From Lamellibrachia columna (Eukaryota > Annelida > Polychaeta > Sabellida > Siboglinidae): a stretch of 64,000 nucleotides of DNA. The position numbers and the translations under genes are program-made. The DNA is taken from the NCBI GenBank assembly GCA_963662155.1, contig OY759266.1, forward strand, positions 59,659,010-59,723,009. The letters run 5' to 3'. The notes under the pieces were generated by a model. The model searched no databases and was not told the DNA's origin. It saw only the letters and a program-made list of their open reading frames with translations. The number at the start of each line of letters is the position of its first letter. Position 1 is the first letter of the stretch. Positions 15,000 to 30,597 of the stretch are shown one piece after another.

Positions 15000-15387
15000 C
15001 TTTGTCGTCGGCGTCGAATATGTCGGCAGCGCGTTTCGGGGACGTCCTTTTCTTGCGGCGGCGCTTGACTGCAGTGAATGTCGCCTTTGCGGCCGTTCGT
15101 TTTATACGTTTACCAGGAGGGGCTCGAATACTGCCGATGGCGTCGGTGACGCGTCTTTTGGCAGCCGTTTTTATGTTCTGACCCGATAAGACGTCGCCGG
15201 CTATGCGAACGCCGGTCTTCAACGCTCCCCTGCCCAACGCCACGGCACCTCTCTTGATGAGCGGCATGGCGCTGCGCAACAGACTGCCGAACAGACTGCC
15301 CAGTCCGTGACCTCGCTGGTATTGCGCACCGGCGAAGTAGGGCAGCGCACCGCCAGCCTGGCGCGCGTAATAATCGTTGTAATTCAT
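14983..15387 (-). CDS. Basic core/minor virion protein (pX/pVI-like)
   Basis: 134 aa with two halves. The first (about 29-68) is amphipathic and glycine-rich (HGLGSLFGSLL, GAVALGRGALKTGVRIAGD). The second is strongly basic (KRIKRTAAKATFTAVKRRRKKR). This resembles adenovirus core and cement peptides in composition only. Small proteins of this make-up next to the capsid gene are usual in Polintons. A QAGG-A sequence at residues 10-14 could be a maturation-protease site. The start ATG overlaps the stop of the minor capsid gene (ATGA), and the end overlaps the major capsid start. Confidence 0.75.
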   Translation of the reverse strand: MNYNDYYARQAGGALPYFAGAQYQRGHGLGSLFGSLLRSAMPLIKRGAVALGRGALKTGVRIAGDVLSGQNIKTAAKRRVTDAIGSIRAPPGKRIKRTAAKATFTAVKRRRKKRTSPKRAADIFDADDKDGVRA

Positions 15388-16217: not shown

Positions 16218-16518
16218 TGCGTCTCAACGTGGGATTGGGCAGTAGGTAACCCAACGAACTACTCAACAGAGCCGTCCACAGATTAGAATCGCCGCGACCT
16301 GTCGTCAGGTTGTAAATGCTGATCAGAATGACCGTGTACAGGACGACGACCTGACACAGAAACACGATCTCCTCTTTGGGACACGCGGTACCGAAAATAT
16401 GCCAGGGAGTGCTGTCTGGCTCGTTCGGTGCAGCGTCAGTACAATCCTCCGTCTCCTCCTCGTCTATGGTGGTGAGGCAGGTCGGTGGTGATGGTGATGG
16501 TGTCGCGTCGTGTGTCAT
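16207..16518 (-). CDS. Small membrane protein
   Basis: 103 aa. An acidic Pro/Thr/Glu-rich N-terminus is followed by one clear transmembrane segment (VFLCQVVVLYTVILISIYNL, about 52-71) and a second hydrophobic stretch (LWTALLSSSLGYLLPNP, about 80-96). Short proteins with the same ending occur next to the minor capsid gene in other Polintons and adintovirus-like elements. The function is unknown; a role in virion membrane contact is a guess. The ORF ends inside the start of the minor capsid gene. Confidence 0.72.
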   Translation of the reverse strand: MTHDATPSPSPPTCLTTIDEEETEDCTDAAPNEPDSTPWHIFGTACPKEEIVFLCQVVVLYTVILISIYNLTTGRGDSNLWTALLSSSLGYLLPNPTLRRNGD

Positions 16519-16548
16519 TCCTCGAATGCAGTGTCGTCGTGTACGCGG

Positions 16549-17622
16549 CTAGGCTTTATAGTTGACGAGTCCCTTGGCATCGATCCAGCTGTTGAAGTAG
16601 GAGCCATGGCCGAACCATTTCACCAAAGCTTCCTTACGTTTACCAACCGTACGGCGTTTCAGTACCGCTTCAACACGGTACACTTTATCAAAGGGCACCG
16701 TCACCTTCTGCAGCTCCAGTTCGTAGAAGGAACCCTCCAGCACGTCGCCGAGATCGTCCCGCAAAAGATACACGGGTGGGTCGGAGGGGTGAACCTCGTG
16801 TACCGCGAACACCTCTTCGCTCCAGTTCGTCTCGTAGCCCTTTTCGAACGTGCGTTTGTACTTGCTGACACGCACGCGATCCGACACGTGCAACTTGGGC
16901 ACGCCCTTACCGTCGTGACCGTACAGACGTTGCCACACCTCTTCTTGGTTCTGTGCATTCACCTGTGACGGAGCCATACCGATCATGCGGTGGCGGGCAT
17001 TGTTATACGATCGCATCAAGTCCGGAAGGACGTCGACGTACCGCCACGTCTGGTGTTTCGTGAAGTAGCGCCACATGCGCGTCTTCAACGTTCGGTTGAA
17101 CCGTTCCACGACGGCTGCCTTCGTCTCCGCGTTGTGCGTGGAGAAGTGATGGATGTCGTAAGCCCGCAATATAGACTGAACGGATTTGTTCCGAAATTCT
17201 CTGCCGTCATCTGTCTGCAACGTCTGTGGCCACGAACCGTCGACGAACGTGGATTGCAGCGCTTTTACCAACGACGCCGCGGACTTGTTCTTCATGGGAA
17301 CACACCAGGCCACTTTCGAGAAGACGTCGATCACCGTGAGGAGAAAGGTCATACCGTCGTTGACGCGTTTGACCTTCGACATGTCCACGAGATCGGCCTG
17401 CCACTGCTGATGCATACCACCCACGATGACTTGTCGTCTCTTGAAATGACGTCTCGCTGGTTTGTGTAAGGTGTAGGTGTCCTGTGCCGACAACCATGCC
17501 TTGACGGTCTTCTGTGGCAGACGCGTGACGCGTCGCAAGCCAGCGACGCCACCATAACTGCCTACCTTCGTGGGATCGAAGTAGACCTCGCTCATGGAGC
17601 GTTCTTCTCCCCTCTGAGCCAT
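16549..17622 (-). CDS. INT: Retroviral-type integrase with chromodomain
   Basis: 357 aa from the ATG at 17622. The frame is open further, to 17823, but that extension starts at TTG, overlaps a small ORF and is not family-like. The N-terminus has the Polinton pattern FDPTKVGSYGGV, VKAWLSAQDTYTLHKP. The catalytic triad is D77 (QADLVDM), D138 (TDDGREF) and E173 (VVERFNRTL), giving the DD(35)E spacing. The last 45 residues form a chromodomain-like module (YRVEAVLKRR, LVKWFGHGSYFNSWI), which may guide insertion to chromatin marks. It catalyses integration of the linear element and would make the 6-bp duplication seen here. Confidence 0.93.
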   Translation of the reverse strand: MAQRGEERSMSEVYFDPTKVGSYGGVAGLRRVTRLPQKTVKAWLSAQDTYTLHKPARRHFKRRQVIVGGMHQQWQADLVDMSKVKRVNDGMTFLLTVIDVFSKVAWCVPMKNKSAASLVKALQSTFVDGSWPQTLQTDDGREFRNKSVQSILRAYDIHHFSTHNAETKAAVVERFNRTLKTRMWRYFTKHQTWRYVDVLPDLMRSYNNARHRMIGMAPSQVNAQNQEEVWQRLYGHDGKGVPKLHVSDRVRVSKYKRTFEKGYETNWSEEVFAVHEVHPSDPPVYLLRDDLGDVLEGSFYELELQKVTVPFDKVYRVEAVLKRRTVGKRKEALVKWFGHGSYFNSWIDAKGLVNYKA

Positions 17623-17767
17623 CAAAAGAGGTGGAGGGTCGATGTGTTGACGGGGGCGGTGACGTTGACTTCGGATTCCCACTGCTGACGAATGACGAGG
17701 AGCACGCCGACGTGTATTAGGACGCATACTATGGCACCCACAATGACAGCGGTGGAACAACAACGAG

Positions 17768-17902
17768 CTAGCGGAGTAACCATAGTCGGAATAACAGCTG
17801 TTGTAGAAGAATGTCGGCTGCAACGTCTCCCAGCACGGTAAGTCCTTCGAACAATAGCGCAGCGACGATGGATCGGTACGTGTCCTGTGGATCGATGAGC
17901 AT
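17768..17902 (-). CDS. 44-aa ORF, shortened copy of the next membrane ORF
   Basis: It begins MLIDPQDTYRSIVAALLF and runs through ILLQQLLFRL to a TAG. It aligns with the start of the 73-aa ORF at 17931-18152 (MSPDPQDAVYQAIVGAIF), 250 bases away, and the DNA around both starts is similar. It is too short for the table of long frames but is plausibly translated. It overlaps the non-family extension of the integrase frame. It may be a remnant of a tandem duplication rather than a working gene. Confidence 0.45.
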   Translation of the reverse strand: MLIDPQDTYRSIVAALLFEGLTVLGDVAADILLQQLLFRLWLLR

Positions 17903-17930
17903 TACTGCTACGGATACGCGTCGTACCGCC

Positions 17931-18152
17931 TTATACGTTGTTCCGTCCAGCCAATGACGACGAAGCCTTGCGTGATGAGTGGGGAGGGTGGGTGGGTGTA
18001 CGAGGAATGGTCCAGTCGTCGAGCGTGGGGGGTTCGAATAACGCCTGTTGCATAAAACTTTGGAGTATACCGTGAGCCATCATGTAGAGTCCACTGATAA
18101 ATATAGCACCGACGATGGCCTGGTAAACGGCGTCCTGTGGATCGGGCGACAT
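17931..18152 (-). CDS. Small membrane protein, possible chimera
   Basis: 73 aa from the ATG at 18152, which aligns with the start of the 44-aa copy (an earlier ATG at 18179 is not conserved there). One hydrophobic helix (AIVGAIFISGLYMMAHGIL) is followed by a Pro/Ser tail. The tail end (PPHSSRKASSSLAGRNNV) resembles the end of the adjacent 257-aa protein (PPERRKALTSLAGWDDL). A duplication of about 250 bp that included one gene's end and the next gene's start explains this. Function unknown. Confidence 0.6.
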   Translation of the reverse strand: MSPDPQDAVYQAIVGAIFISGLYMMAHGILQSFMQQALFEPPTLDDWTIPRTPTHPPHSSRKASSSLAGRNNV

Positions 18153-18188
18153 GACGAACACTGTGCTACGGACACGCATCGTACCATC

Positions 18189-18962
18189 CTATAGGTCGTC
18201 CCAACCAGCCAATGACGTCAAAGCCTTGCGTCTTTCGGGGGGTGGGGTGGGCATGGAATGTTCCATTCGACGGCTCTTACGGCCGAGGGGTGTCCAACTT
18301 AGCGATCTTCGTGCACGACCTGATGCAGCACGCGGAGGAGTACTGGACCGACGAGAGGGAGTGACCGTCGGCTCCGGACGTATGTAGGCTCTTCTGGCGA
18401 CGTTACCGACCAACGTCATGGGTAGGTTGATGGCACGGAGTTGTCGTGCGAATGGCAGCCAACCCGTCGGAGCGGTCTGTCTCTTACGCAACAGATCATT
18501 AACGAGATCCACCACGTTACTTCCGACAACCGGCACGCCCTCGTGTATCAGTTCGCCGCGAGCGGTCCACGTGATATCTCTCTTGAGATGCTCCATCAAA
18601 CGGCTGGCTTTGGCCTGCATGGTCTTGGGAACGGTGGCCAAGACGGTGGCCTCCAGTCCGCTAATAGGAGCTGGTGCTGTACCCGTCGACCCCGACTCCG
18701 ACGCCACCTCCGACTCGTTCACCGTGACCACACGTAGCGGTTCCTTGATGCGTTTATCGGCCAAGACGTTGTAACGCTGCAACACCTGATTATACAGGGT
18801 CACCTTGGTCCAGTCGTCTAGGTCCGTTCTATCCAGGATGGTCTTCATCTCGTCATCGAGGGCTTGCACCTTCTTGCCTAAGGTGTCGGTCGCGGGTGGG
18901 GGTGACCGAAGCGTGTCCAACAGTCGCGGGTCCACCAAGGCCATCTTGCGTGCGTGGTCCAT
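18189..18962 (-). CDS. Conserved Polinton protein, function unknown
   Basis: 257 aa. The N-terminal part (MALVDPRLLDTL, LDDEMKTIL, LYNQVLQRYNVL) and the middle (GVPVVGSNVVDLVNDLLRKR, PTGWLPFARQLRAINLPMTLVGN) match a family I recognise from other animal Polintons, which lies between the integrase/membrane ORFs and the ATPase. The first third is probably helical or coiled-coil and the C-terminus is basic and Ser/Pro-rich. No enzymatic motif is visible. A structural or assembly role is inferred from its place in the virion cassette only. A second in-frame ATG at codon 7 is the likelier start by family pattern. Confidence 0.65.
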   Translation of the reverse strand: MDHARKMALVDPRLLDTLRSPPPATDTLGKKVQALDDEMKTILDRTDLDDWTKVTLYNQVLQRYNVLADKRIKEPLRVVTVNESEVASESGSTGTAPAPISGLEATVLATVPKTMQAKASRLMEHLKRDITWTARGELIHEGVPVVGSNVVDLVNDLLRKRQTAPTGWLPFARQLRAINLPMTLVGNVARRAYIRPEPTVTPSRRSSTPPRAASGRARRSLSWTPLGRKSRRMEHSMPTPPPERRKALTSLAGWDDL

Positions 18963-18966
18963 GTAT

Positions 18967-19335
18967 CTACCTTTTGTTCAGCACCTCTCGGAGCAAGGGT
19001 AGCAAGACCGAACTGGCCAACGGTGCTAGGAAGGCCGATAGGAAGCCGCCGCTCTGTCCCTCACCAATCTGTGGTTGCAGCAGTAGACGTCTTCTCCTGG
19101 CAGCTGGCGTTCGTCTATTAGCCAACGCGCGTAACCTCGTCCTGTATTTATTCAATCGTTGCCTCTGTAAAGGGGACAATGGAATGTTTTTTGTTAGTAT
19201 GTTGTATGCACACTCGGCTAGTGCACACAGCAGATCGGAGTCGGCGTTGGCGATGATAGCCTTTTTAATTTTGTTGCTCTTGACTCTGGCCAGAGCCTGT
19301 ATGCACACGATGTGTCTCTTCACCCTGGCGGACAT
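18967..19335 (-). CDS. Conserved small Polinton protein with hydrophobic tail
   Basis: 122 aa from the ATG at 19335 (MSARVKRHIVCIQALAR). The frame is open further upstream, but that part overlaps the ATPase and is compositionally odd. The middle (LLCALAECAYNILTKNIPLS) and the Arg-rich stretch (RTPAARRRRLLLQ) are typical of a Polinton family of unknown function. A QSGG-F sequence (94-98) precedes a hydrophobic C-terminal helix (FLSAFLAPLASSVLLPLL). If the maturation protease cuts after GG, a membrane-active peptide would be released, much as adenovirus pVI works. That is inference. Confidence 0.65.
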   Translation of the reverse strand: MSARVKRHIVCIQALARVKSNKIKKAIIANADSDLLCALAECAYNILTKNIPLSPLQRQRLNKYRTRLRALANRRTPAARRRRLLLQPQIGEGQSGGFLSAFLAPLASSVLLPLLREVLNKR

Positions 19336-19372
19336 GATGCGAATGAAGAGACTATCCACACACTCGGTCGTT

Positions 19373-20029
19373 TTATACCTTCGGCAGGTACACGTACTGA
19401 ACACCGTCGTCTGGAAAGATGGCCGTGCGCAGACGCATGTCCTCGGGCGTGTCCTGTTTGAGATCGACCAATAGATAACCGTACGGTACCGCCGTGGCGT
19501 CTTTAAACGCCTCTTGCACGAACTTGCCGCGTCCCGGATACATCTGCCGCGCCAAGGTCGACATCTGCGATGCGTCACGTGGATTCTTGAACACCACCAT
19601 GTACTGCGAATTCAGACTGATGGTGCGACTCTCTTTGTTTTTAGGGAACAGGTTCTGTACGAGATACAGCACGGACGTGTTCCTGTGGTGACTTTTTTTA
19701 GTGAACAGGGCCGTGACCCGTTCGTCCGTTTCTGCCATGAGATCGTCTATGACGATGAGGTTCCTCGTTGTCGGATCGAACATGGCCGCCGTCGGTAACC
19801 CTTCCTCGAATCGCACGTGACCCAATTCCGTCGTTGCGTAAGCCTCTTGCCATTCTCCGTAACACCACGTGATCTGCTGGGGCGGTGGATCGATCATCGC
19901 AGCGGCGTGACGCAACATACGCGTCACGAAAGTACTCTTGCCGCACCCCGTCGGTCCGGCGACGATGCACGTGAAGGGGTGTTTCCATCGCGCATCCATG
20001 AATGCGTGTGCAACGAATGCAGCGTGCAT
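19373..20029 (-). CDS. ATP: Genome-packaging ATPase (FtsK/HerA type)
   Basis: 218 aa. Walker A is GPTGCGKS (residues 25-32), Walker B is LIVIDD (91-96), and YLVQNLF, a sensor-like motif, follows near 125. Length and motifs match the Polinton A32-like packaging ATPase, which is thought to pump the linear genome into the procapsid. It lies 11 bases downstream of the polymerase stop on the same strand. A start at codon 11 (MDARWKHPFT) is also possible. Confidence 0.93.
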   Translation of the reverse strand: MHAAFVAHAFMDARWKHPFTCIVAGPTGCGKSTFVTRMLRHAAAMIDPPPQQITWCYGEWQEAYATTELGHVRFEEGLPTAAMFDPTTRNLIVIDDLMAETDERVTALFTKKSHHRNTSVLYLVQNLFPKNKESRTISLNSQYMVVFKNPRDASQMSTLARQMYPGRGKFVQEAFKDATAVPYGYLLVDLKQDTPEDMRLRTAIFPDDGVQYVYLPKV

Positions 20030-20040
20030 CGCCTTTTCTA

Positions 20041-23000
20041 CTATACGTCCACCGGACCCGTGGTCACCCCGTCCTCGTGCACCACGCGTTTGGCGTAAAA
20101 GAAGGTGAGTGCATCCCGATTCTGCACGTACGTCATGACGGTGGAGTTATGCACCCGGAAACCCCGGTTCGAACCGCCTCCGCTCCGACGGTTGGTGAGC
20201 ACCTCCAGGAACGCGTCCTTGTCTATGGTGTTGTGCCGTTTGCTGAGACCTTTGGTGCTGTACTTGTCGGTGGCGCCGAAACAGTAGTACGTCTTGCTAC
20301 ACAACCCCACGAACCCCGCACCGGACCACTCGACCTTGAACAGACCCGGCGTCCTCTTGTCGAATGCTCTGCGCGCCTTGCAGCACGCCTCGTCGCCGAC
20401 CCACGGTCTATTGGCGAGACGACAGCGCACGTAGTCGTTCCGATGGTCGTCGCAACATTCGGACGGCAGCCATTCCGACCGATGGCGGAAATAATGGGCT
20501 CGCAGTGTCGGGGTCACGAGGTCGTCGACGGACTCGGCGGCCAAGGCTAAATAGGCACTATCCGTATCCATCTCGCAGTACTCGAACAGAGGGCGCTCCA
20601 CGTACCTGACGATGAAATCGTAATAGAACTGCAACATGCGCAACTTGGCGTACTGCAGAACGAAGAATCCCACGTGTACGGGTAGGGTGTACTTGATGGT
20701 CTTCTTGTTCAGTTCTATCTCGTACGCGTCGTCGACGACCATGTCGAGTTGACGGAATCGTTTATCGTTGACGAGGAGCGATGCCGCCTTCTCCGTGCAG
20801 TAGCTGACGTCACGATGTCGGTCGACGTTGGTGATGGTCTTTCCGTAGCCCGAGTTCCCCAGCAACTTCATGGTGTCCGCGATGATGGTCCTGTCTCGGT
20901 GAACGTCGCCCTCGCGTCGGGCCTTGGACACTGCATCGCCGAACCGCCGGAAACACGGAACGGGATCGTATTCGACGACCTGGTACACGTGCAGCACCTC
21001 GAGACCGTGGTCCAGATACCATCGCAGCAGTGGCGTTGCGAGCAGTATCTTGTCGCCGCAATAACTACCCACGAGCATGCGCCGCGGAGTCTTCATTATG
21101 TCGTGCTCTTCGGCGTATCGGCGCATGAACGGACCGAGATCCTCCCGTTGCATACCGATGTTCTTGAACACGGGCTGCATCTCGGCAAAGTGCGCGCGCA
21201 ACGCTTCCGGTACGCGTACGTCGCACTCGATCATGCCGAACACGGTTCCGGCACGCACTCCGTTCAGGATCTGTTGTGACGTCATCGTCCATTGCACGTG
21301 TCGACGTCGGGGAAATGCTGCATCCACACACTTGCGTACGGCCGGTGTTCGTCTCATCTCCTTCCACTCGCATTCCCACAACTCGACGACCGTGACAAAG
21401 TGTCGTAGGTAGGCGGTGGTCTTTCGGGTCTCGGCGAGCAGTTGCGCCATGGGTTTCCCGTTGACGGCGTTCACCTCCTCTCGGTTGCACGAGCAACCGT
21501 GAAAGAAGCAACCTTGGAACTGATAAGCCGTCTTCGTCTCGCTGCACCATCCGTCCACCCGATGTTTGCCTATGCGCTTCTCTCGTCCGTTGATCTGATG
21601 CCGTATGGACCGTCCCGTGCGTTCGGATTCCCACGTCAACCATTCTCCGGCCATCTGTCCGTACAGCTGCGCCGATTCGGGGCGGAAGTCCTTCTCCGCT
21701 CGTCGTCGCGTGTACCATCCCATAGGCATGTCCTGCATGAGCGACCACAGGTACAGTGCGTTCGCATCGTATCCGACGATCGCTCGACAGGGACGAGCCG
21801 CCTCTCCGTACTCGTTCCGACGTAGCGTGGTGACCCCTGTCGCGTGATAGCGATGAAAGATGATCGAAGGCCCGCCTACAATGTTCGCTTTGACCAGGTC
21901 GTGCAGGTCTTTGTTCTTCTCGTTGAAGATGGTAAAGTAGGTCTTCTCTGGCAGGTCGTTGAACAGGTACAGCAGGGTCAGACCGGGTACGCTGATACCT
22001 TGCTTGAACATGTCTATTCCCCGTTGTCGATAGAACGCGAACTGTCTGTCGATGGCCTGTAGAAAGGGAACCACGTCCCTGTTGTTGTACCAGACGAGAA
22101 AGTCGCGCAACGTCGTCATGCCATTGACGCGCCAGGCCTCCTGACAACTGGCGTAATCCTCGTCTGAAATCCCTTCGTTCTTCAGTCGACTGAAGAAGGC
22201 CTCTTTCGGTGGAAGTGTGGTGTCGTCGAGTCTCTCCAGTCTGTCCATGTACTCGTACGGGAAATGACCTTTCGTCACCTCGCATCCGTACGCTTTCAGA
22301 TACTTGTCGTAGCTGAACCCGGGGGCTATGTAGTTGATCATGTCTACGAATTTCAGCTGATCCGTCGAAAGACACATGAAAGTGTTGTTGCGTTTGATTA
22401 CGAACATTGACCCGATGCCGTCGGTCTCGACTTTCCTGTTGCCCTCCTGCTCCCTCTCGTCCGCGGCCTCGTCCTGTTCCACGTCGGTCTTTGAAGTCGT
22501 CAGGAAGTACGGTATGAGGAACTGTTTGATGGCATTGAGATCATACTTCCCCGAATTGAACCCGACGACGGGTAACTGACGCATCCATCCATACATTTGT
22601 CCCATCAGCGTTTTGTACGGATTGGTTGCCGCTCGCCCTTTCTTCTCGCCGGCCTCCCGTGCAGCTGCGTCCCGTGCAGCCTCCTCCCGTGCGTCCCATT
22701 TCGTCATCTCTTCTGCGAGTTGTTCCAGCACATGATCGTACGAGTCTTTGATCTTGTCGTACGCGGCCTCACTCATCGCTTGTAGGACAGTCATCATGGT
22801 GCTCACCAACTTGTTGACGTCTCCGTCCGTGACGATGCATGTCACCTGTTCGTGTCCGGGTACGTTGGATGCCACGCTGACGCTCAACGGGACGTGACGT
22901 GCAACCCAGTGAACCTGGGCACTGTCCACCGGAAGGTGTTCGGTGTCGAACCAACACTCGAAGTCGAAGGTGGCTCGGTACGGATAGTACTGCAACGCTT

Positions 23001-24564
23001 CGGCCACTCGGATGTTCTCGTCTGCCAGACGTTCGAACACCGATGGAGTCGAATGGTACACGCCACCAGGATAGACTCGGCGCACACCCCCCGTACACGT
23101 GCTCTCGTGGTTGCGTAGATGCCATGCGTCTTTCCACAACGAGTCACCGCACTTCCGACATCTGTACGAGTGACAGTACATGCGTCTATCCTGGATGTAG
23201 GAAAAATGCGTCCCGTGCAGATTGAGGTAGAGTGTGTCCGGGTACTTACATACCGAGCGACGAACGAGTTCTGCGGTCGCCTTTCCACCATCCTCCTCCT
23301 CTGCCTCATCTCCATCCGGTTTTACGAGACTGTACACGCACACGTTTGTTTCGAACGTGGTCTCGACACGATAGAGGTCGTCCATCGTGACCCCGGCAAA
23401 TGCTGCCATGGGTACGCCGTCTTGGGCGTACGTCGCGTACAGCGTCTCCACAGCCGGTTCCAATCGACGCCGTTCACATCCGCGATGCAGGGCCAGACAT
23501 CGAAAGAGACACAGGTTGTCATTGTACCTTTTGGTATACTGGGGCTCCGTGTCCAATGCGATGACGGCTTTGTTCCTCTTGATGTACATGGGAAGGTCGG
23601 TCATTCCTACACATCCTATCGGGTGATCGATGATGCGATTGACGAAAAATGTGACATTGGTCACGAGTTCGCACACCCACGCCGAATCCGGTCTTTGATT
23701 GATGGCCCATTGCAAGACGTCGGTTTCGCGGATGCGTTCGAGGAACTTATCAAAGTCCTTGCTGTTGGTGATGAGACTGGGCTCGTCCAGGTAGCGTCCA
23801 CAGCAGTTGCACGAGGGATGGTAGTACTTGTATTGACCCGTGTTCTTGTTCCTCAGAACGAACCCGTAACTGAGGTTAATCTTGAACGCGTTGGTCTGTT
23901 CCTGGAACACGTTCCTCAACGACGGCTCTAGAACGGTCGTGTCCAGCGTCGTTACTCTGTAATCGTACCTGCACTGAAGAGGACCTCTCGTTACACGTGT
24001 CCGTATGGTCGACCAGTGCGCTCGTACGACATCTAACAGTTCCGACGACAGGTTGTCGGCGAAGGGGAGTCGGGCAGGTGGGTCTATAGGGTCGGCATCG
24101 GTAACGAGTGGATGGTTGGGTGTGGTGTCTTCCCTGATTGATATCTTAGGCGATGGTGGCGTCGTGTCGTCGTCGTCGTCGGCGGTACACGCATTTCGTA
24201 CGTGTCTGGTCAGGGTACGGCGTCTATTGAACGTCATTCCACATTTCGCACATGTGTACACTGTGGTCTGTTTTCTATTACTGCTACTGCTACTGCTACG
24301 GCTACGGTTACTGCTAAGACGACATACGGACCTCACATGGTCTTGCAGATCGTCCCATATGTCGAACGTTGCATCACATTTACAGGAATACTTAGTTCGC
24401 TTTGCCTGTTCGCTAGGTGGCACCTCCCGTGGCACATCTAGTGGTGGCGCCACCGAATACGTATGTTCGATCACTGCCGGTGTCGCATGACTCACTAGGT
24501 GGCGTTTGAGCGCTGCATAGGTGTCGAGCACCTGTCCGCAGTGACGACATTGGTGTCTTTTCAT
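20041..24564 (-). CDS. POLB: Protein-primed family B DNA polymerase with N-terminal add-ons
   Basis: 1507 aa. Three C2H2/C2HC-type fingers open it (about 5-26, 59-81, 104-126). An OTU-like region follows, with DNLCLFRC (Cys352 or Cys356) and THFSY (His453), then another zinc motif near 469-490. The 3'-5' exonuclease has motifs FDFE (533-536), FNSGKYDLN (669-677) and YNNRD (826-830). Polymerase motif A is GYDANALYLWS (Asp933), motif B is KLLGNSGYG (1233-1241) and motif C is DTDS (1333-1336). A nuclease-like insert (VDGWCSETKTAYQFQGCFFHGC in outline, 1003-1024) lies between A and B. All catalytic residues are present, so replication of the element by protein priming and strand displacement is possible. 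Confidence 0.95.
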   Translation of the reverse strand: MKRHQCRHCGQVLDTYAALKRHLVSHATPAVIEHTYSVAPPLDVPREVPPSEQAKRTKYSCKCDATFDIWDDLQDHVRSVCRLSSNRSRSSSSSSNRKQTTVYTCAKCGMTFNRRRTLTRHVRNACTADDDDDTTPPSPKISIREDTTPNHPLVTDADPIDPPARLPFADNLSSELLDVVRAHWSTIRTRVTRGPLQCRYDYRVTTLDTTVLEPSLRNVFQEQTNAFKINLSYGFVLRNKNTGQYKYYHPSCNCCGRYLDEPSLITNSKDFDKFLERIRETDVLQWAINQRPDSAWVCELVTNVTFFVNRIIDHPIGCVGMTDLPMYIKRNKAVIALDTEPQYTKRYNDNLCLFRCLALHRGCERRRLEPAVETLYATYAQDGVPMAAFAGVTMDDLYRVETTFETNVCVYSLVKPDGDEAEEEDGGKATAELVRRSVCKYPDTLYLNLHGTHFSYIQDRRMYCHSYRCRKCGDSLWKDAWHLRNHESTCTGGVRRVYPGGVYHSTPSVFERLADENIRVAEALQYYPYRATFDFECWFDTEHLPVDSAQVHWVARHVPLSVSVASNVPGHEQVTCIVTDGDVNKLVSTMMTVLQAMSEAAYDKIKDSYDHVLEQLAEEMTKWDAREEAARDAAAREAGEKKGRAATNPYKTLMGQMYGWMRQLPVVGFNSGKYDLNAIKQFLIPYFLTTSKTDVEQDEAADEREQEGNRKVETDGIGSMFVIKRNNTFMCLSTDQLKFVDMINYIAPGFSYDKYLKAYGCEVTKGHFPYEYMDRLERLDDTTLPPKEAFFSRLKNEGISDEDYASCQEAWRVNGMTTLRDFLVWYNNRDVVPFLQAIDRQFAFYRQRGIDMFKQGISVPGLTLLYLFNDLPEKTYFTIFNEKNKDLHDLVKANIVGGPSIIFHRYHATGVTTLRRNEYGEAARPCRAIVGYDANALYLWSLMQDMPMGWYTRRRAEKDFRPESAQLYGQMAGEWLTWESERTGRSIRHQINGREKRIGKHRVDGWCSETKTAYQFQGCFFHGCSCNREEVNAVNGKPMAQLLAETRKTTAYLRHFVTVVELWECEWKEMRRTPAVRKCVDAAFPRRRHVQWTMTSQQILNGVRAGTVFGMIECDVRVPEALRAHFAEMQPVFKNIGMQREDLGPFMRRYAEEHDIMKTPRRMLVGSYCGDKILLATPLLRWYLDHGLEVLHVYQVVEYDPVPCFRRFGDAVSKARREGDVHRDRTIIADTMKLLGNSGYGKTITNVDRHRDVSYCTEKAASLLVNDKRFRQLDMVVDDAYEIELNKKTIKYTLPVHVGFFVLQYAKLRMLQFYYDFIVRYVERPLFEYCEMDTDSAYLALAAESVDDLVTPTLRAHYFRHRSEWLPSECCDDHRNDYVRCRLANRPWVGDEACCKARRAFDKRTPGLFKVEWSGAGFVGLCSKTYYCFGATDKYSTKGLSKRHNTIDKDAFLEVLTNRRSGGGSNRGFRVHNSTVMTYVQNRDALTFFYAKRVVHEDGVTTGPVDV

Positions 24565-24621
24565 GCTGCTCTGCTCTGCTCTACGTGTCTACAACTGAGA
24601 GAGTGCGGTTCTTAGTACAGC

Positions 24622-24628
24622 TATATAG
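24622..24628 (-). promoter_or_regulatory. TATA box for the polymerase gene
   Basis: TATATAG on the - strand, 57 bases before the polymerase ATG, a fitting distance for a short leader. It is the only TATA-like element in this spacer. Confidence 0.55.
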
Positions 24629-24633
24629 TACGT

Positions 24634-24708
24634 GTGGTGGTGGTGGTGGTGGTGGTGGTGGTGGTGGTGGTGGTGGTGGTGGTGGTGGTGGTGGTGGTGG
24701 TGGTGGTG
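24634..24708. repeat. (GTG)n microsatellite
   Basis: About 25 GTG units just upstream of the polymerase TATA box. The - strand reads (CAC)n. No protein-coding role is likely. Confidence 0.95.
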
Positions 24709-24709
24709 A

Positions 24710-25234
24710 TGGTGGAGGTTATTGGTGAAGGGTGTATCACCTATGGTGGTATTGGCAACTGTGTGTCCCACTATCCATGGCTACGGGTTATATTTCAACT
24801 CATGACAACACCACTAACAACACGTTTCGTTCATTGTAAGACGTTTTATTGCGTATATAAAGACATAGCGATATACATAATATACATATACATATACACG
24901 GTTAGACCTATATAATTACTATGATGATGATGATGTTGATTACTTGTGGGTTTGTGGGAATGCTACATCCTCGCCAGTGACCCCTAGCTTACGGTCGGTT
25001 ATCGACACGCCAGTGGCTAGTACAATGATTATTAACTTGTGGGTTTTTACACCGCGACAGAGGTTCCGTACAATGATGTAATATATATAGGTTGGTATGT
25101 ATATTTATATATATATATATGTATTACTATATGTCTTGCAAATACAATATGTGCGCGAATACATACATACAATACAGGCGAGAGAGAGAGCGAGAGAGAG
25201 ACACTACCTACTATTATCCCGTTGCAAACGGTGC
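24710..25234. other. Accessory-region spacer with poly(A) signal
   Basis: No convincing gene. An AATAAA on the - strand at 24845-24850 could end transcripts coming from the accessory genes at higher coordinates. AT and GA repeats lie at 24865-24915, 25080-25120 and 25180-25200. Confidence 0.5.
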
Positions 25235-25838
25235 TTATTGAAATGCGGAGGTTTCAAGCATGAAATCAACAATTCCCTGTATTAAATTATGTATTGTGCG
25301 TCTTCTCTCATCCCTTGCTAGCACGGGTGCTTCCTCCACCTCTTCCTCCCTCTCCTCCTACATAACAAGAAATGCGTCTACTGTATTCGTATACTGATAT
25401 AATGTTTTCTATTATCTTTACTAATTTCAATAATGTGGTCAGCAATGTCGCTCATTAATTCATGTAATGGACGTCTCATCTCGTCCCTTGCTGGCACCTC
25501 GTCCTCCCTCTCCTGCTCCTACATAACACAATAGATCTACTGTTCATCGTTTGTTGATATCATATATTCAAGTATCATCACCACTAATTGTCGGCATGCA
25601 CGTCTACGCAGTTCCATCGGTGACACAGGTACGTCATCCTACATAACAAATTAAAGGATACCAATATATCACTCCATATTACGTCATACACCAACTACTT
25701 CTAACTAGGTTATGTTTACTACTGCTACTACTAATAATAATACTCTGTTGACGACGTCATATACGCGGAGAACATTACTGCAGATAGCTCCCGAATGCTG
25801 GCTGGGAGGACGGGTGCCTCGTCGTCATACTCTTCACT
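25235..25838 (-). CDS. Array of four homologous alternative last exons (predicted)
   Basis: On the - strand, GTTATGTAG occurs four times, each time followed directly by a short open segment ending in its own stop: 25838-25731 (35 aa), 25638-25537 (33 aa), 25518-25378 (46 aa) and 25357-25235 (40 aa). All four read in the same phase right after the AG. All share one design: an acidic start, then APVL/VPV/VPA, then an Arg-rich amphipathic helix, for example DDEAPVLPASIRELS, DDVPVSPMELRRR, EDEVPARDEMRRPLHELM, EEAPVLARDERRRTIHNLI. Branch-point-like and pyrimidine-containing sequence precedes each. A phase-0 donor (AAG then GTGTGT, exon end 26151) lies in the acidic gene just upstream. I infer alternative 3' exons; there is no transcript evidence. 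Confidence 0.5.
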
Positions 25839-25940
25839 CTACATAACACCAATGTTAATATTACTAATAATACAATTATTACGTTTACTACTAATTACCA
25901 CCTATTTAAACACCAACAACAACAACAACAACAACACCTT

Positions 25941-26771
25941 CTACCTAAGCGGTCGCGTTATTGCCCGCGGTTGACGGATGGCACATCGCACGTATTGCAT
26001 TGTGTGCTCTTGATATTCGGCGGAGAGTACCGTGCCGGCCAGTGCCCGACACACGTCGACCGTCACCTCTTCCACCGTGGCAGGGGCGGTTCTCCGCCAC
26101 AGTTTAGTAATAAGACGTGCGAGGTGCAGTTGCATTTTGTGGAAACACACCTTGCCCGTCTTGTCCGCGTCTTCTTCTTCGTCGTCGGTGGCGTCGTCCT
26201 CTTCGTGGGCATGCGCCGTCGACGTCGACGGCTGCGGCTCCGGCTCCGGCTTTGTGTGTGTGATGGTATGTTGATCGGGGATGTCCACCTGTTCACCGTC
26301 GCGGGTCAATACGACGGTTTTATCCGGGAAGACATAGAGGGTCGTCAGGGATGCGTCGTCGTCGTCGTCGTCGTCGGCGTCGTCGTCGTCGTCCTGCTTG
26401 CGCTGGACGAGTGGTGGCGACGCGGGACTAAATTGGAAGTCCGCATCGTCGACTTTCGCGGGCTCGGGGGATGAGGCAATCGCATCCTCATCCTCACTGT
26501 AGTAATGGGGAGGGGTGTTTATAATGCACTCGTCTATAATGCACACGTCTTCCTCGGACTCAGACTCCGATTCGATGGTCCACGGTGGTAGCAACCCCTC
26601 TTGGTTGTCCGGATACGATTCGGGATTGGTCAGGGGTGATGGTGGGTAGAACGAGGTTGTCATCGAGGATGTCTTCAGCCTCTTCGCCGCTCGTGTCACC
26701 CCATCCTCGCTGTCGTTGTACAGTGCCGCCAGGTCGCGTTTATACGCGTTCTGGAGTTGCTCCAGTCCCAT
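25941..26771 (-). CDS. Acidic accessory protein, predicted alternatively spliced
   Basis: 276 aa if unspliced. The N-terminus is basic/helical (GLEQLQNAYKRDLAALY). The middle is Ser/Glu/Asp-rich, with an Asp tract (127-139) and a SUMO-interaction-like motif (VCIIDE, 76-81, preceded by acidic residues). The C-terminal 69 residues look folded (MQLHLARLITKLWRR, VTVDVCRALAGTVLS). Codon 207 ends exactly at a GT donor (exon end 26151). Splicing there would replace the C-terminus with one of the four exon modules downstream (products of 242, 240, 253 or 247 aa). A TTCTGTTCAATAG acceptor-like sequence precedes the ATG. No known family recognised; acidic transactivator-like composition is all that can be said. 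Confidence 0.6.
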   Translation of the reverse strand: MGLEQLQNAYKRDLAALYNDSEDGVTRAAKRLKTSSMTTSFYPPSPLTNPESYPDNQEGLLPPWTIESESESEEDVCIIDECIINTPPHYYSEDEDAIASSPEPAKVDDADFQFSPASPPLVQRKQDDDDDADDDDDDDASLTTLYVFPDKTVVLTRDGEQVDIPDQHTITHTKPEPEPQPSTSTAHAHEEDDATDDEEEDADKTGKVCFHKMQLHLARLITKLWRRTAPATVEEVTVDVCRALAGTVLSAEYQEHTMQYVRCAIRQPRAITRPLR

Positions 26772-26811
26772 CTATTGAACAGAACGCATAGGTTACATTA
26801 CGTGGGTTATA

Positions 26812-27372
26812 TTATTCCGCGTCGCCCTGCATATCGTTATTGTCGTATGTTTCGTACATACTCTTTCTAACCAATTCGGTCACTCGGTTACGCCATTTCA
26901 TGGTCCCGCACGTTGCGATGACATCTATAGATAGCCACCGCAAGACGTGCATGACCATGCTGGTCGATGGCACGTAACGATCCTTATCATCGTTTAGATT
27001 CATTATGCGTTCAACCTCGTCACTGGCATATCGCACACTGGCGGCCTCTAGCGCCTTATAGAATATGTTTTCATTGGTCATGGCTTCGGATCTATCACGT
27101 AACCTATCTAGACCGCTAACAGTAGCCTCCATATCAGCGCTACTGCTAATGCTATAATGTGACGCCGACGACGCACTGTTCTCCCCCTGGTCGTCATCTG
27201 ATATTACAATCAGTGGTGGCGGCGAACCGCTGTCCACCGAGGAGGAGAACAGTATTTCCGTGCTGTTAGCCTGTAACCATTGCATTACCTTAGCGCGTCC
27301 ATCTCCGTCGATGATGTCATCGCCGCTTCCGGTTGCCACTGCAGTGGCTGCCGCAGCGACGATCGAGCCAGC
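26812..27372 (-). CDS. ORF without ATG start, predicted downstream exon of the NADAR gene
   Basis: 187 codons are open from an AG acceptor (CCGTTGACAG, exon starts 27372) to TAA. There is no ATG until 27285; an apparent start at 27339 is a GTG. The frame after the acceptor is phase 0 and matches a phase-0 donor (AGCAG then GTAGGT, exon end 27806) inside the NADAR-RPA gene. Joining them would give a NADAR protein of 450 aa with this tail instead of the OB-fold. The tail has a strong SUMO-interaction-like motif (PLIVISDDDQ) and a helical C-terminal half (VERIMNLNDDKDRYVP, VMHVLRWLSIDV). No family recognised. Independent use from the ATG at 27285 remains possible. Confidence 0.5.
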   Translation of the reverse strand, partial: AGSIVAAAATAVATGSGDDIIDGDGRAKVMQWLQANSTEILFSSSVDSGSPPPLIVISDDDQGENSASSASHYSISSSADMEATVSGLDRLRDRSEAMTNENIFYKALEAASVRYASDEVERIMNLNDDKDRYVPSTSMVMHVLRWLSIDVIATCGTMKWRNRVTELVRKSMYETYDNNDMQGDAE

Positions 27373-27388
27373 CTGTCAACGGAATGGT

Positions 27389-28597
27389 TCACACTGTGAC
27401 TACTTCCATGTTGGCCACCGTGTAATTTACGTACGGTCCTGCCATACGTTTACGAATGGTCACCATGACTCGGGCCCCCCGCAGCATGTCCAGTGCTGCA
27501 TACCGCTCGGCATCTGACGTCATGTTTATGTAATCGTTCCCCGTGTATCCTAGCAACTGGACAGCCTTGTCGTTAAATATGGTTCCCCACACTTCGCTGC
27601 CGATGGCGTCTTGTAGGAGGACACGCATGGCGAACCGATACACTACACCCCGCTGCCATCGATGAATGGGACACACATACCCATTGTTTTCGGGAATGAC
27701 CCGTTTGTTGCACTGCTGACATGATGGATAAACGATATATTTCTCTTGAACGGCGACTTGTACTATGGTTAACGGTCGTCTTATTATATAGGTACCGTTA
27801 CCTACCTGCTTCTCGAGTTGGCTCAGAGTGGTCATCATCTCGGCGTCCTGGTCGCTGGTTGTCTTGGTGACTGTGGTGGCGGCCATTTCTATGTCTCTGC
27901 TGGTGCTGTTCGTGAAGGGTTTCGAAGTCGTCTGTGAAGCGGAGAGTGGTTGTATGACTCGATCACTCCGAGTCGGGCTTATATAGTCCTCTCCCCGACT
28001 GTGGCGCGCTTTCTTATCGTCGCCCCTTGGTCGAGCGCGTGACGCCGATGCTGATGCTGCATGTCTGGTATCTGCGTCCGACCCTTGGTCGATCGCGCGA
28101 TGCGGCCGCTGGATGTCTGCCATCTGGCTGTACTCTGGAGTCTGATGTAATCGTATGGCCTCGCGTACTAGCATGGTTATATGACCTAGCATGTTCTGAC
28201 CGGCTTGACCACTGTATGTCAGTGCACCCCAGTATCCTTCCCGACTCTTGACCCATTCCTGCAACTGGGAATGCCCAGTGTCCAACAGTCGTTTACGTAG
28301 GGTTGGATCGCGATATTTAACGGTCACTAACCCATACATTAATGCATATCGTTGTCTCGTCCATTCTGAGCGTAACATTTCCTTTTCTCGTATGTACTTG
28401 CTGAGCTGTTTCGCCTGTAGACCCGTGCGCGTGGCCAGCATCCTTTGCGCCGTCTGCATGTCGTCATGATGCATGCACTTCCGCCATTGATACGCGCTTT
28501 CGACACTGGTGAATTCTCTATTACAGGCGTGTATCCTGCAGGCGTAGAAATTGGACAGGAACTGTTTACCTCCTTTAAACCGTATAGGTTGGTTCAT
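27389..28597 (-). CDS. NADAR domain fused to RPA70-type zinc OB-fold
   Basis: 402 aa. Residues 5-150 are a NADAR/YbiA-like domain: FKGGKQFLSNFYAC, SVESAYQWRKC (Glu34), RYALMYGLVTVKYRDP, LLDTGHSQLQEW, YWG (122-124), GQNMLGHITMLVR. NADAR enzymes are N-glycosidases acting on ADP-ribose-linked bases or riboflavin intermediates. A charged linker (152-235) follows. Residues 265-402 resemble the RPA70 DBD-C OB-fold, with a zinc site C293-x2-C296-x12-C309-x2-H312, then YRFAMRVLLQDAIGSEVWGTIF and AVQLLG. This suggests a single-strand DNA binder that brings ADP-ribose removal to replicating DNA. An in-frame donor at codon 264 and an internal TATA box in the linker suggest separate isoforms. Confidence 0.82.
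   Translation of the reverse strand: MNQPIRFKGGKQFLSNFYACRIHACNREFTSVESAYQWRKCMHHDDMQTAQRMLATRTGLQAKQLSKYIREKEMLRSEWTRQRYALMYGLVTVKYRDPTLRKRLLDTGHSQLQEWVKSREGYWGALTYSGQAGQNMLGHITMLVREAIRLHQTPEYSQMADIQRPHRAIDQGSDADTRHAASASASRARPRGDDKKARHSRGEDYISPTRSDRVIQPLSASQTTSKPFTNSTSRDIEMAATTVTKTTSDQDAEMMTTLSQLEKQVGNGTYIIRRPLTIVQVAVQEKYIVYPSCQQCNKRVIPENNGYVCPIHRWQRGVVYRFAMRVLLQDAIGSEVWGTIFNDKAVQLLGYTGNDYINMTSDAERYAALDMLRGARVMVTIRKRMAGPYVNYTVANMEVVTV
27978..27985 (-). promoter_or_regulatory. Internal TATA box in the NADAR linker
   Basis: TATATAAG on the - strand, the same octamer as the + strand promoter at 28815-28822. The next in-frame ATG (27886, codon 238) has a good context (GAAATGG) and lies 92 bases downstream. 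It could drive a short form holding only the OB-fold, or the spliced tail, without NADAR. Confidence 0.45.
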
Positions 28598-28722
28598 GGT
28601 GACTTTATGACGTTAACATGTACAGTTACTGTCTTAACTACGCGGTGTTCTAGCACTGTAGAGTACGTAACCCCCTGCTTTTTCCTTGCGTGATGGATGC
28701 CAGGTGTTGGTAAGCTGACAGT

Positions 28723-28768
28723 TGCCGGCCGCTTATCTCTTTTCTGCCGGCCTCTTATCTGTTTTCTG
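28723..28768 (+). promoter_or_regulatory. Tandem GATA-type sites in a divergent promoter
   Basis: Two direct copies of TGCCGGCC(G)CTTATCTcTTTTCTG in outline, overlapping end to start. Each holds CTTATCT, the complement of the AGATAAG GATA-factor site (28732-28738 and 28754-28760). They lie between the NADAR gene (- strand) and the + strand spliced gene, 55-83 bases before the latter's TATA box. Confidence 0.5.
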
Positions 28769-28814
28769 ATTAGTGTGGTATTGTTCCGAGGCTGACGCAG
28801 GTTCTAGCATGCTC

Positions 28815-28822
28815 TATATAAG
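28815..28822 (+). promoter_or_regulatory. TATA box of the + strand accessory gene
   Basis: TATATAAG, 73-80 bases before the ATG at 28895. A transcript start near 28845 would give a 5' leader of about 50 bases. This is the cleanest core promoter in the element. Confidence 0.65.
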
Positions 28823-28894
28823 ACGTCTGGGTTCGTCGTGTCGTCATAACAACCGCCATTGCCGTCGACACCGTTAGTAGCACACACACGCATA

Positions 28895-29712
28895 ATGTCT
28901 GTATTCGGCTTGCGCGATTGCATGGAGTTCGTCGTCGTCGCGGAACTCCTGCAGGCGGTACCTCTATTGCAGGGTATTGTGTGAGTATTTCTTTTATTTA
29001 TTTATTTATTTATTTCTATTTTGTTACTTTCATAGCTCTCCATAGCTCATACCTGTTTTAACTTATGCCTTTGCATATTTTGACTCTTATTGTGTCCTTT
29101 ACTTATTACAGCGTTCCATGTTTCAACTGGGCCTGCGTGCTCATCGAGTTGATGGAGGACGCCCCCCTACGCCGGAGCTGCCAGGCGACCGTCCTGTTTC
29201 GGGAGGCGCTCTACGATGCCGGTCTCCTGTCGGCCTTCGGTGTTCATGCCAGTCGTTGGCGCCACGTCATGAGTGACATTGCGTTTATGTACGGCGATGG
29301 ATTTCGCACCTCGACCGCCTCCCCAGAGTCGTGGGATGACGACTTGACCGCCATCACCGCCGCCGTCACCGACACTCACGCTGCCGACGAGGACTTCGAC
29401 GATGCCGGAGAGTGGGACGACGACGACATAGCCGCCATAGACACCGCCACCGACGCCCACGAGGTCGAGGTGATGGCCTTCCGGGATCATATGTCCAAAT
29501 GGGAGCGGGTGATGCATGAGTTGGTCCTCATCCACGCCCCATCGACCGCATCCGTTTTCCGTCACGTTCACCTCGGCCCCGTCCATCTCCCATCACTCTT
29601 CCGGCGTCGTCGATCTGTATCGCTACGAATTGCGTTGGCGCGCAAGTTGACCGCTCGAGCCGTCCGGAGGTCGTTGCTGACGGCATTCAACACCGTTCCA
29701 CAATGCCCTTGA
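28895..29712 (+). CDS. Two-exon acidic accessory protein (228 aa)
   Basis: Exon 1 is 28895-28980 (MSVFGLRDCMEFVVVAELL). The intron is 28981-29111 (GTGAGT to TTATTACAG), 131 bp with a TTTA repeat. Exon 2 is 29112-29712. The join keeps the frame and total coding is 687 nt including TGA. The intron-side reading of exon 2 has no conserved start, so splicing decides the gene. The protein has a helical N-terminal half, an Asp/Ala-rich middle (ADEDFDDAGEWDDDDIAAID) and a basic C-terminus (LFRRRRSVSLRIALARK). Two segments look alike: SRWRHVMSDIAFMYG and SKWERVMHELVLIHA. No family recognised. It is the only gene on the + strand of the Polinton. ATTAAA at 29800-29805 may end its transcript. Confidence 0.75.
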
Positions 29713-29722
29713 CTTTATTATA

Positions 29723-29723
<1 letters not shown>

Positions 29724-29765
<42 letters not shown>
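29724..29765. repeat. (CTA)n microsatellite
   Basis: About 13 CTA units directly after the + strand accessory gene. Confidence 0.95.
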
Positions 29766-29799
29766 GCTTTTATATTTGTACTTGTTCTTTTTTCGTTTT

Positions 29800-29805
29800 A
29801 TTAAA
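29800..29805 (+). terminator. Poly(A) signal variant
   Basis: ATTAAA 88 bases after the stop of the + strand accessory gene, in a T-rich 3' region. Confidence 0.4.
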
Positions 29806-30378
29806 TTTGCATCACCTTATATTCCCGTCTTGTATTGCGTTCTTGCTCCAACTGCGTGTTGGCACATTATATTATATTATATTTTATGTCCATTTTCGTC
29901 CTGCTACATTTTATTTAACGAACGGTCCGATTTCCCTCGTCCAGCGGTTATATTGTAGCCATGCATGTCGACTATTTATTCACTTTTACACATTCGTCTT
30001 ATCTTTATCGGTTTTAATTTTATCACGTATTTTGTCCACTACATATAACAGGCTATAACATGCAGCGGTCCCACATCAATGTCGTCACTGCAACTTAGTT
30101 GCTGTTTATCGCTTATTAGCTCAGCTAACTTGCTACATTGTACAGATTAGCGTCCTTTGATCTCGCGCTATGGCTCACAGCTGGATAAACGCTTCGGCTT
30201 ACAGTTAACTCCAGTCGTTCGGACGTCCAGTTGTCATTAGCTAACCACTCGGACTGGTCACTCCGTCGAGGTCACGGTCACGTGTTGTCGTGGGTGGGTG
30301 GGTGGGTGGGTGGGTGGTGGTGGGTGGGTGATATTACGTGTATTTTCTTTGTTCCTATGTCCATCATAGATGACCACC
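29806..30378. other. Polinton right subterminal spacer
   Basis: No gene seen. It contains a G-rich (GGGT)n run on the + strand at 30289-30330, with enough G-triplets for a quadruplex, followed by unique sequence up to the right inverted repeat. Confidence 0.6.
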
Positions 30379-30591
30379 GGTCACTGTTCGTTCCTCCTCC
30401 GGTCGCTAGGGGCGCGGCACGCGCATGCGCGCCACGCTGAGCCGCCGCCGCCGCCGCCAGGGGGCGCTCCAAGGTCTAGTGCTGCTTTCTGATTGGCTGC
30501 GCGCACTCATTAGCGGTGGGCGATATTAGGGTCGTTATTTTGATCTTTTGATGGCCCGATAAGGGGGACCCAAAAACCTCTGCTAACTACT
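30379..30591. repeat. Polinton right terminal inverted repeat
   Basis: 213 bp, the inverse of 12699-12910, ending GCTAACTACT. It has one extra CGG-type unit and lacks two bases of an A-rich stretch relative to the left end. Confidence 0.95.
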
Positions 30592-30597
30592 TTCGAC
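30592..30597. repeat. Polinton target-site duplication, right
   Basis: TTCGAC directly after the right terminus, identical to 12693-12698. Confidence 0.95.

What the first reader, a model, noticed from the sequence alone, without database searches (positions are those of the whole stretch)
27389..28597. NADAR domain fused to an RPA70-type zinc OB-fold in a Polinton
Seen: a YbiA/NADAR-like domain (FLSNFYAC, SVESAYQW, RYALMYGL, YWG, NMLG) and, in the same frame, an OB-fold resembling RPA70 DBD-C with a C-x2-C-x12-C-x2-H zinc site. Known: NADAR enzymes remove ADP-ribose from modified guanine, and RPA DBD-C binds single-stranded DNA. Some animals, including clams, make pierisin-like enzymes that ADP-ribosylate guanine in DNA. 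Inference: the element carries its own single-strand binder armed to erase ADP-ribose from its replicating DNA, a possible counter-defence against host DNA ADP-ribosylation. I do not know of a described protein with this architecture.
Basis: partly seen in the sequence, partly recalled or inferred. Interest (0 to 1): 0.88.

Follow-up and report, generated by a model that had tools for sequence, protein, structure and literature searches.

The report
Tubeworm Polinton NADAR and RPA genes
A virus-like mobile element in a deep-sea tubeworm carries two neighbouring genes, one predicted to strip ADP-ribose from nucleic acids and one resembling a single-strand DNA-binding protein; in this branch of the family they happen to share one reading frame, but they look like two genes with separate start signals.

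Summary
Both domains and the open frame are real. The 402-aa minus-strand ORF holds a YbiA-type NADAR domain with its catalytic residues and an RPA70 DBD-C-like domain with a C-x2-C-x12-C-x2-H site. The element is Polinton-like: long TIRs, 6-bp TSD. The host is probably the tubeworm Lamellibrachia columna, not a clam. The single-fusion-protein reading is weak. Ninety-nine full-length copies of this subfamily were listed, 95 without internal stops. With a sister RPA protein as query, 150 of 150 scored copies lie in frames of 178-296 aa, too short to include NADAR. Of 14 such copies read, 13 have a NADAR ORF with its own stop. The 'linker' holds a TATA box 90-99 nt before the RPA ATG in the L. 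columna copies checked and 67 nt before it in DNA from a Lamellibrachia anaximandri bin. Both genes show dN/dS near 0.27 between subfamilies. I conclude: a conserved NADAR plus RPA-like gene pair not found described for Polintons; the fused frame looks like a derived read-through.

The parts
12699..30591 (.). Polinton-type element, 17,893 bp; the genes listed here are on the minus strand
   Evidence: TIRs and 6-bp TSD read
12693..12698 (.). target-site duplication TTCGAC, left copy
30592..30597 (.). target-site duplication TTCGAC, right copy
12699..12910 (+). left terminal inverted repeat
   Evidence: I4-I6
30379..30591 (-). right terminal inverted repeat
   Evidence: I4-I6
27389..28597 (-). 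402-aa open frame joining NADAR and RPA-like domains
   Evidence: 99 full-length copies listed in the genome
28151..28567 (-). NADAR (YbiA-type) domain, residues 11-149; predicted active-site residues E33, K40, W79, R83, E114, W123
27887..28132 (-). 'linker' codons 156-237: spacer carrying a TATA box; aligns to spacer with frame-breaking indels in relatives
27978..27985 (-). TATA box TATATAAG, 99 nt before the RPA ATG
27884..27886 (-). ATG of M238, inferred start of the RPA-like gene (context GAAATGG)
27389..27886 (-). RPA70 DBD-C-like gene, residues 238-402
27662..27721 (-). zinc site C293-x2-C296-x12-C309-x2-H312
26812..27339 (-). neighbouring 175-aa ORF of unknown function; a homolog also follows RPA in L001
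25941..26771 (-). neighbouring 276-aa ORF of unknown function
20041..24564 (-). family-B DNA polymerase-like ORF (Pfam match below cut-off) with C2H2 zinc-finger-like stretches near its N-terminus
19373..20029 (-). packaging-type ATPase (Adeno_IVa2 / Pox_A32 / FtsK-like)
16549..17823 (-). retroviral-type integrase (rve) with chromodomain-like end
13202..13681 (-). possible adenovirus-type protease (weak, E 0.047)

Best explanation
The window holds two adjacent genes of a tubeworm Polinton. Gene 1 encodes a YbiA-type NADAR hydrolase, predicted to remove ADP-ribose from guanine in nucleic acid or from soluble ADP-ribose derivatives (inferred from catalytic residues and fold). Gene 2 encodes an RPA70 DBD-C-like zinc protein, inferred to coat single strands exposed in protein-primed replication, and has its own TATA box inside the 'linker'. 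In this recently amplified subfamily, changes in the spacer leave no stop between the genes, so one frame runs through both. A 402-aa protein may be made from long transcripts as a by-product or secondary form, but the RPA-like protein is probably made mainly on its own from M238. Shown: domains, catalytic residues, separate ORFs in relatives, conserved TATA box, low dN/dS between subfamilies. Inferred: promoter use, direction of change (separate to fused), enzyme activity, ssDNA binding, counter-defence role.
For: Separate genes elsewhere: 54 RPA-type and 52 NADAR-type database hits, listed as their own proteins (their length limits exclude 402-aa proteins, which one search covers), with 10 of 50 representative-contig lengths shared between the two sets. 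With the sister RPA protein P0010, 150 of 150 scored copies (of 1205 candidates) lie in frames of 178-296 aa. Of 14 copies read, picked by me, 13 have a NADAR ORF of 166-190 aa with its own stop and one (L112) a broken NADAR. Own promoter: TATATAAA 90-96 nt before the RPA ATG in 8 of 8 copies and TATATAA[AG] 93 nt before it in 6 of 6 more; TATATAAG in 84 of 85 copies of the window's subfamily; TATATAAAG in the more distant L001, where NADAR ends in its own stop and the spacer has stops in all three frames. The spacer alignment shows indels that are not multiples of three. In the RPA alignment 24 of 28 relatives have a Met at the M238 column. Selection: ratio of mean dN to mean dS 0.28 for NADAR and 0.26 for RPA between subfamilies (28 non-independent pairs from 8 sequences each). 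Within the fused subfamily the RPA core is constrained (omega about 0.28, p 0.0001; whole RPA part 0.48, p 0.008), NADAR (0.76) and linker (0.68) not significantly. NADAR active-site positions: E33 in 21 of 21, K40 in 20 of 21, E114 and W123 in 24 of 24 rows with a residue there.
Against: Of 99 full-length fused-subfamily copies, 95 have no internal stop. In 7 of 7 checked copies of a sister subfamily NADAR and RPA share a frame separated by a single TGA, so read-through could have a longer history. No A[AT]TAAA signal lies on the minus strand from the NADAR start down to 25900, so nothing seen would end NADAR transcripts before the RPA gene. Linker omega (0.68) is below 1, though not significantly. 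The TATA box is not exceptional within the subfamily: 68 of 238 linker 8-mers are as well kept. The RPA tree places the fused rows as one branch among separate ones, but only 4 of 38 inner branches are well supported and the root is midpoint, so 'derived' rests on distribution and on L001. L001 is itself a decayed copy lacking most of NADAR. No transcript data were available. Copies are the best-scoring 103 of 1921 candidates, which favours intact frames.
Confidence: 0.72

Rival explanations
1. One reading: a true fusion protein in which the RPA-like domain delivers the NADAR eraser to the element's replicating single strands.
For: One open frame in 99 full-length copies, 95 without internal stop; one-frame arrangement with a single TGA in a sister subfamily; no A[AT]TAAA signal between the genes.
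Against: Separate ORFs in the sister subfamilies checked; TATA box inside the linker; frame-breaking indels in the spacer; copies this alike (mean pairwise 1.43%) would keep an accidental frame open for lack of time. The in-frame 9-nt deletion shared by 14 copies lies just after M238, inside the RPA part, so it does not bear on the linker.
Confidence: 0.18
2. The fused frame is pure accident with no product: only the RPA-like protein is made in this subfamily, NADAR being on its way out.
For: Within the subfamily NADAR variants are not distinguishable from neutral (omega 0.76, p 0.31).
Against: NADAR catalytic residues are intact in the window copy; the sample is small and recent; NADAR is constrained between subfamilies.
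Confidence: 0.08
3. The NADAR acts on soluble ADP-ribose derivatives or RNA rather than on the element's DNA, so the neighbouring RPA-like gene is unrelated in function (compatible with the two-gene reading).
For: The authors of PMC9503650 posit that viral NADARs might prefer soluble ADP-ribose derivatives or RNA-processing by-products (passages); NADARs also occur in retrotransposons (PMC12477816 passages).
Against: The same paper proposes macromolecular targets for NADARs of eukaryotic RNA viruses; all NADAR/YbiA proteins tested in PMC11125620 acted on guanosine ADP-ribosylated DNA oligos (passages).
Confidence: 0.35

Closest known systems
YbiA/NADAR hydrolases (E. coli YbiA 2b3w, Phytophthora nicotianae NADAR 8bau)
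   Different: Carried by a Polinton next to an RPA-like gene; activity not tested
RPA70 DBD-C (PF08646; 6i52, 4gnx, 1l1o)
   Same: Sequence profile E 2e-6 to 5e-5, zinc-ribbon insertion
   Different: Stands alone, about 157 aa in most relatives listed; Cys3-His zinc site where human RPA70 has four cysteines (recalled); OB-fold not confirmed by the poor model
Polintons/Mavericks of animals
   Same: Long TIRs, 6-bp TSD, rve integrase, ATPase, family-B polymerase-like ORF
   Different: NADAR and RPA-like genes; no held paper contains both 'NADAR' and 'Polinton'
NADAR-bearing retrotransposons: Ectocarpus Gypsy, Crassostrea gigas Tx1 LINEs (PMC12477816, passages)
   Same: Mobile element that acquired a NADAR domain
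   Different: RNA-based elements, domain in Pol or ORF1, no RPA partner mentioned in the passages seen
NADARs of DNA and RNA viruses, including annelid/bivalve picornaviruses (PMC9503650, passages)
   Same: Viral use of NADAR, including viruses of annelids
   Different: 'polinton', 'RPA', 'replication protein A' and 'OB fold' have 0 occurrences in its main text

Membership tests
NADAR/YbiA | Profile match above curated cut-off | tested here: met
   60.8 bits against 35.1; phrog_1017 E 9.7e-32, a family without a name there
NADAR/YbiA | Catalytic residues equivalent to P. nicotianae E43, K50, E125, W133 | tested here: met
   E33, K40, E114, W123 by alignment; conserved in family
NADAR/YbiA | YbiA fold | tested here: met
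NADAR/YbiA | Hydrolysis of guanine-linked ADP-ribose | not testable with these tools
   needs biochemistry
RPA70 DBD-C | Profile match above curated cut-off | tested here: met
   45.6 bits against 28.5; 29 of 29 rows of A1 match PF08646 at E 0.01 or better
RPA70 DBD-C | Zinc-ribbon insertion | tested here: met
   C293 and C296 in 28 of 29 rows, C309 in 29 of 29, H312 in 27 of 29; Cys3-His, not Cys4
RPA70 DBD-C | OB-fold | tested here: inconclusive
RPA70 DBD-C | ssDNA binding and trimer formation | not testable with these tools
   needs biochemistry
Polinton/Maverick | Long TIRs and 6-bp TSD | tested here: met
Polinton/Maverick | rve integrase | tested here: met
   PF00665 E 7e-12, above cut-off; Chromo 23.8 bits, just below its cut-off 25.1
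Polinton/Maverick | protein-primed family-B polymerase | tested here: inconclusive
   PF03175 E 3.5e-4, 20 bits, below cut-off 25.8; no PDB polymerase match
Polinton/Maverick | packaging ATPase | tested here: met
   Adeno_IVa2 21.1 bits against cut-off 21, borderline; Pox_A32 and FtsK below cut-off
Polinton/Maverick | Ulp1-like protease and jelly-roll capsid proteins | tested here: inconclusive
   Peptidase_C5 E 0.047; capsid candidates without a Pfam match or a significant PDB match
Single NADAR-RPA fusion protein | Both domains in one frame across the family | tested here: not met
   Frame shared only in the window's subfamily among those checked; 150 of 150 scored sister RPA copies in frames of 178-296 aa; separate stops in 13 of 14 copies read

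The most novel reading that the evidence does not exclude
Tubeworm Polintons carry an anti-ADP-ribosylation module: NADAR clears ADP-ribosyl-guanine from the single strands that the element's own RPA-like protein covers. In this subfamily the spacer change physically tethered the two, and the tethered form is the one that spread to about 100 copies or more. This would imply that the host restricts replicating mobile DNA by ADP-ribosylating guanine.
Probability: 0.17. Interest if true: 0.85.

Novelty: new variant of a known kind. Interest (0 to 1): 0.5.

Why it matters
NADAR enzymes serve as bacterial antitoxins, but their role in animals is described as unclear (PMC11125620 passages). A selfish DNA element of an animal that keeps a catalytically complete NADAR gene under purifying selection, beside an RPA-like gene, is a natural place to ask whether animals ADP-ribosylate foreign DNA. 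It also shows that a striking 'fusion' read from one copy can be a recent frame merger over a promoter-like box, which matters for reading domain architectures from transposon ORFs.

Tried and rejected
Fusion as an ancestral, conserved architecture: rejected. Clam host: rejected, because the five longest chromosome lengths match Lamellibrachia columna. Relatives in IMG/VR: none found with the fusion protein, the RPA alignment or the NADAR alignment. One GTDB record matched, a MAG of a Lamellibrachia anaximandri endosymbiont that evidently holds host DNA. The L. satsuma gene model P0006 seems to join NADAR in frame to residues like the start of the RPA protein; it may contain a predicted intron and was not counted either way. 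Comparing tails of NADAR-only proteins with the three window frames was mostly uninformative. A full-length mixed alignment for folding aligned badly and was not used. The RPA structure model was poor and gave no useful match; absence of a match there says nothing. Capsid and polymerase searches in PDB sequences gave no capsid or polymerase. Search for a DarT-type enzyme in the host genome: unanswered three times. I first took the in-frame 9-nt deletion of 14 copies as support for the fusion; it lies inside the RPA part and says nothing on it. The open-frame column of the genome search is not strictly stop to stop: it lists 191 for the copy in L111, where I read 179, and passes one TGA.

Rows dropped or chosen: tree used 42 rows (fragments under 110 aa or without the motif left out); L108 was dropped for RPA (slice shorter than the others), L112 for NADAR (broken) and L001 for both; alignments A1 and A2 used 29 and 24 rows chosen from the hits; L105-L112 were picked from 150 rows as a spread, L113-L118 because of their listed frames of 365-412 aa; partial copies L101-L104 were not used in the counts.

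Full report

Element and host. The ORF lies in an element bounded by 212/213-nt inverted repeats (12699-12910, 30379-30591) and a TTCGAC duplication on both sides, with an rve integrase, a packaging-type ATPase and a large polymerase-like ORF. This fits a Polinton, although polymerase, protease and capsid matches were weak or absent. The genome that holds the window has 879.69 Mb, and its five longest chromosomes equal those of Lamellibrachia columna wsLamColu1.1, 879.73 Mb (PMC13080331, passages). The host is therefore taken to be that tubeworm, an inference from lengths only.

One gene or two. The full-length database search found 6 relatives among 1828 candidates, and only one (P0001, 97% identical, 140 member sequences) carries both Pfam domains. 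Searches with each half found 54 RPA-type (72 candidates) and 52 NADAR-type proteins (61 candidates). The length limits of these half searches would not list 402-aa fusions, so one search is the test for those.

The genome search gave DNA. With the fusion protein as query, 104 matches were listed, 103 of 1921 candidates having been scored. Ninety-nine are full length (85 of 1206 nt; 14 of 1197 nt with a 9-nt deletion just after M238), and 81 of 85 plus 14 of 14 have no internal stop. Mean pairwise difference among the 85 is 1.43%, maximum 3.15%: this looks like a recent burst, sampled from its best-scoring members. With the sister RPA protein P0010 as query, 150 of 1205 candidates were scored; all 150 are listed with frames of 178-296 aa, too short to include NADAR. 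I read 14 sister copies, 8 (L105-L112) and 6 more (L113-L118). Thirteen have a NADAR ORF of 166-190 aa ending in its own stop, and one (L112) has a broken NADAR. In 7 of 7 checked copies of one sister subfamily both genes share a frame with a single TGA between them; for these the NADAR search lists frames of 365-412 aa, which equal NADAR plus stop plus RPA; rows listed there with 279-319 aa were not read. In the others the frames differ or further stops intervene.

TATA box in the linker. In the window TATATAAG lies at 27985 on the minus strand, 99 nt before the ATG of M238; the element holds 3 TATAWAAG sites on both strands against 0.49 expected from 100 simulations. The box is kept in 84 of 85 subfamily copies, though 68 of 238 linker 8-mers are as well kept, so this alone is weak. 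The stronger evidence is between subfamilies: TATATAAA sits 90-96 nt before the RPA ATG in 8 of 8 copies and TATATAA[AG] 93 nt before it in 6 of 6 more. In L001, a decayed copy from a Lamellibrachia anaximandri endosymbiont bin, the word GAGGACTATATAA recurs so that the box stands 67 nt before the RPA start, in a spacer with stops in all three frames after a NADAR stop. A shared word of 13 nt or more arose in 2 of 300 simulated pairs. The spacer alignment shows indels that are not multiples of three in the very region that is the linker in the window. In the RPA alignment 24 of 28 relatives have a Met at the M238 column. Against this, no A[AT]TAAA signal was seen between NADAR and RPA on the minus strand.

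Selection. Between subfamilies the ratio of mean dN to mean dS is 0.28 for NADAR and 0.26 for the RPA core (28 non-independent pairs from 8 sequences each). Within the fused subfamily the RPA core is constrained (omega about 0.28, p 0.0001; whole RPA part 0.48, p 0.008), while NADAR (0.76) and linker (0.68) cannot be told from neutral. So NADAR has been maintained over longer times as its own gene; there is no sign yet of selection on the joined protein. The RPA tree puts the fused rows on one branch among separate ones, but with weak support and a midpoint root.

Mechanism. Most likely the element makes an RPA-like protein for single strands exposed in replication and, separately, a NADAR that reverses ADP-ribosylation. 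The substrate could be guanine in DNA, as for the enzymes tested in PMC11543638 and PMC11125620, or soluble derivatives as PMC9503650 posits for viral NADARs, which also proposes macromolecular targets for those of eukaryotic RNA viruses (passages only). The fused frame in this subfamily may yield an extra protein, but nothing found requires it.

Novelty. Held papers with both 'NADAR' and 'Polinton': 0. The 15 papers naming the NADAR domain (listing) include one with NADARs in Gypsy and Tx1 elements (PMC12477816, passages) and one on viral NADARs with 0 occurrences of Polinton, RPA or OB-fold (PMC9503650). Searches joining Polinton with replication protein A or OB-fold (5 papers each, 5 and 4 listed) showed nothing about such a gene in titles and starts of abstracts, adintovirus with ssDNA-binding gave 0 papers, and NADAR with DNA transposon gave 35 papers of which 20 were listed. 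The library lacks most subscription papers, so this is not proof of absence. I rate it a new variant: known domains in a known element class, in a combination I did not find described.

Noticed in passing
window 9961-11611 and 35614-37221: Inverted repeats, 78-93% complementary, flank the Polinton at a distance; the left one overlaps a 957-aa endonuclease/RT ORF (8690-11563), so they look like two LINE copies.
   Followed up: partly
window 7767-8687: 306-aa ORF just before the LINE RT ORF with GDSL lipase and OSK domain matches, as in LINEs with an esterase ORF1 (recalled).
   Followed up: no
window 57303-60434: 1043-aa retrotransposon ORF with RVT_1 and RT_RNaseH matches.
   Followed up: no
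window 20041-24564: The polymerase-like ORF has C2H2 zinc-finger-like stretches at residues 4-26 and 103-123 (scores just below cut-off), unexpected to me for a Polinton polymerase.
   Followed up: no
window 28815 (+) and 29065-29712 (+): TATATAAG on the plus strand 250 nt before a 215-aa plus-strand ORF that faces away from NADAR; it may be a divergent gene of the element.
   Followed up: no
L001: A public MAG of a Lamellibrachia anaximandri endosymbiont contains what looks like host Polinton DNA, including a broken RPA-like gene read in two frames.
   Followed up: yes
L105, L113-L118: Sister subfamily with NADAR, one TGA, then the RPA frame, with the same stop and next six bases in 7 of 7; possible stop-codon read-through was not tested.
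   Followed up: partly
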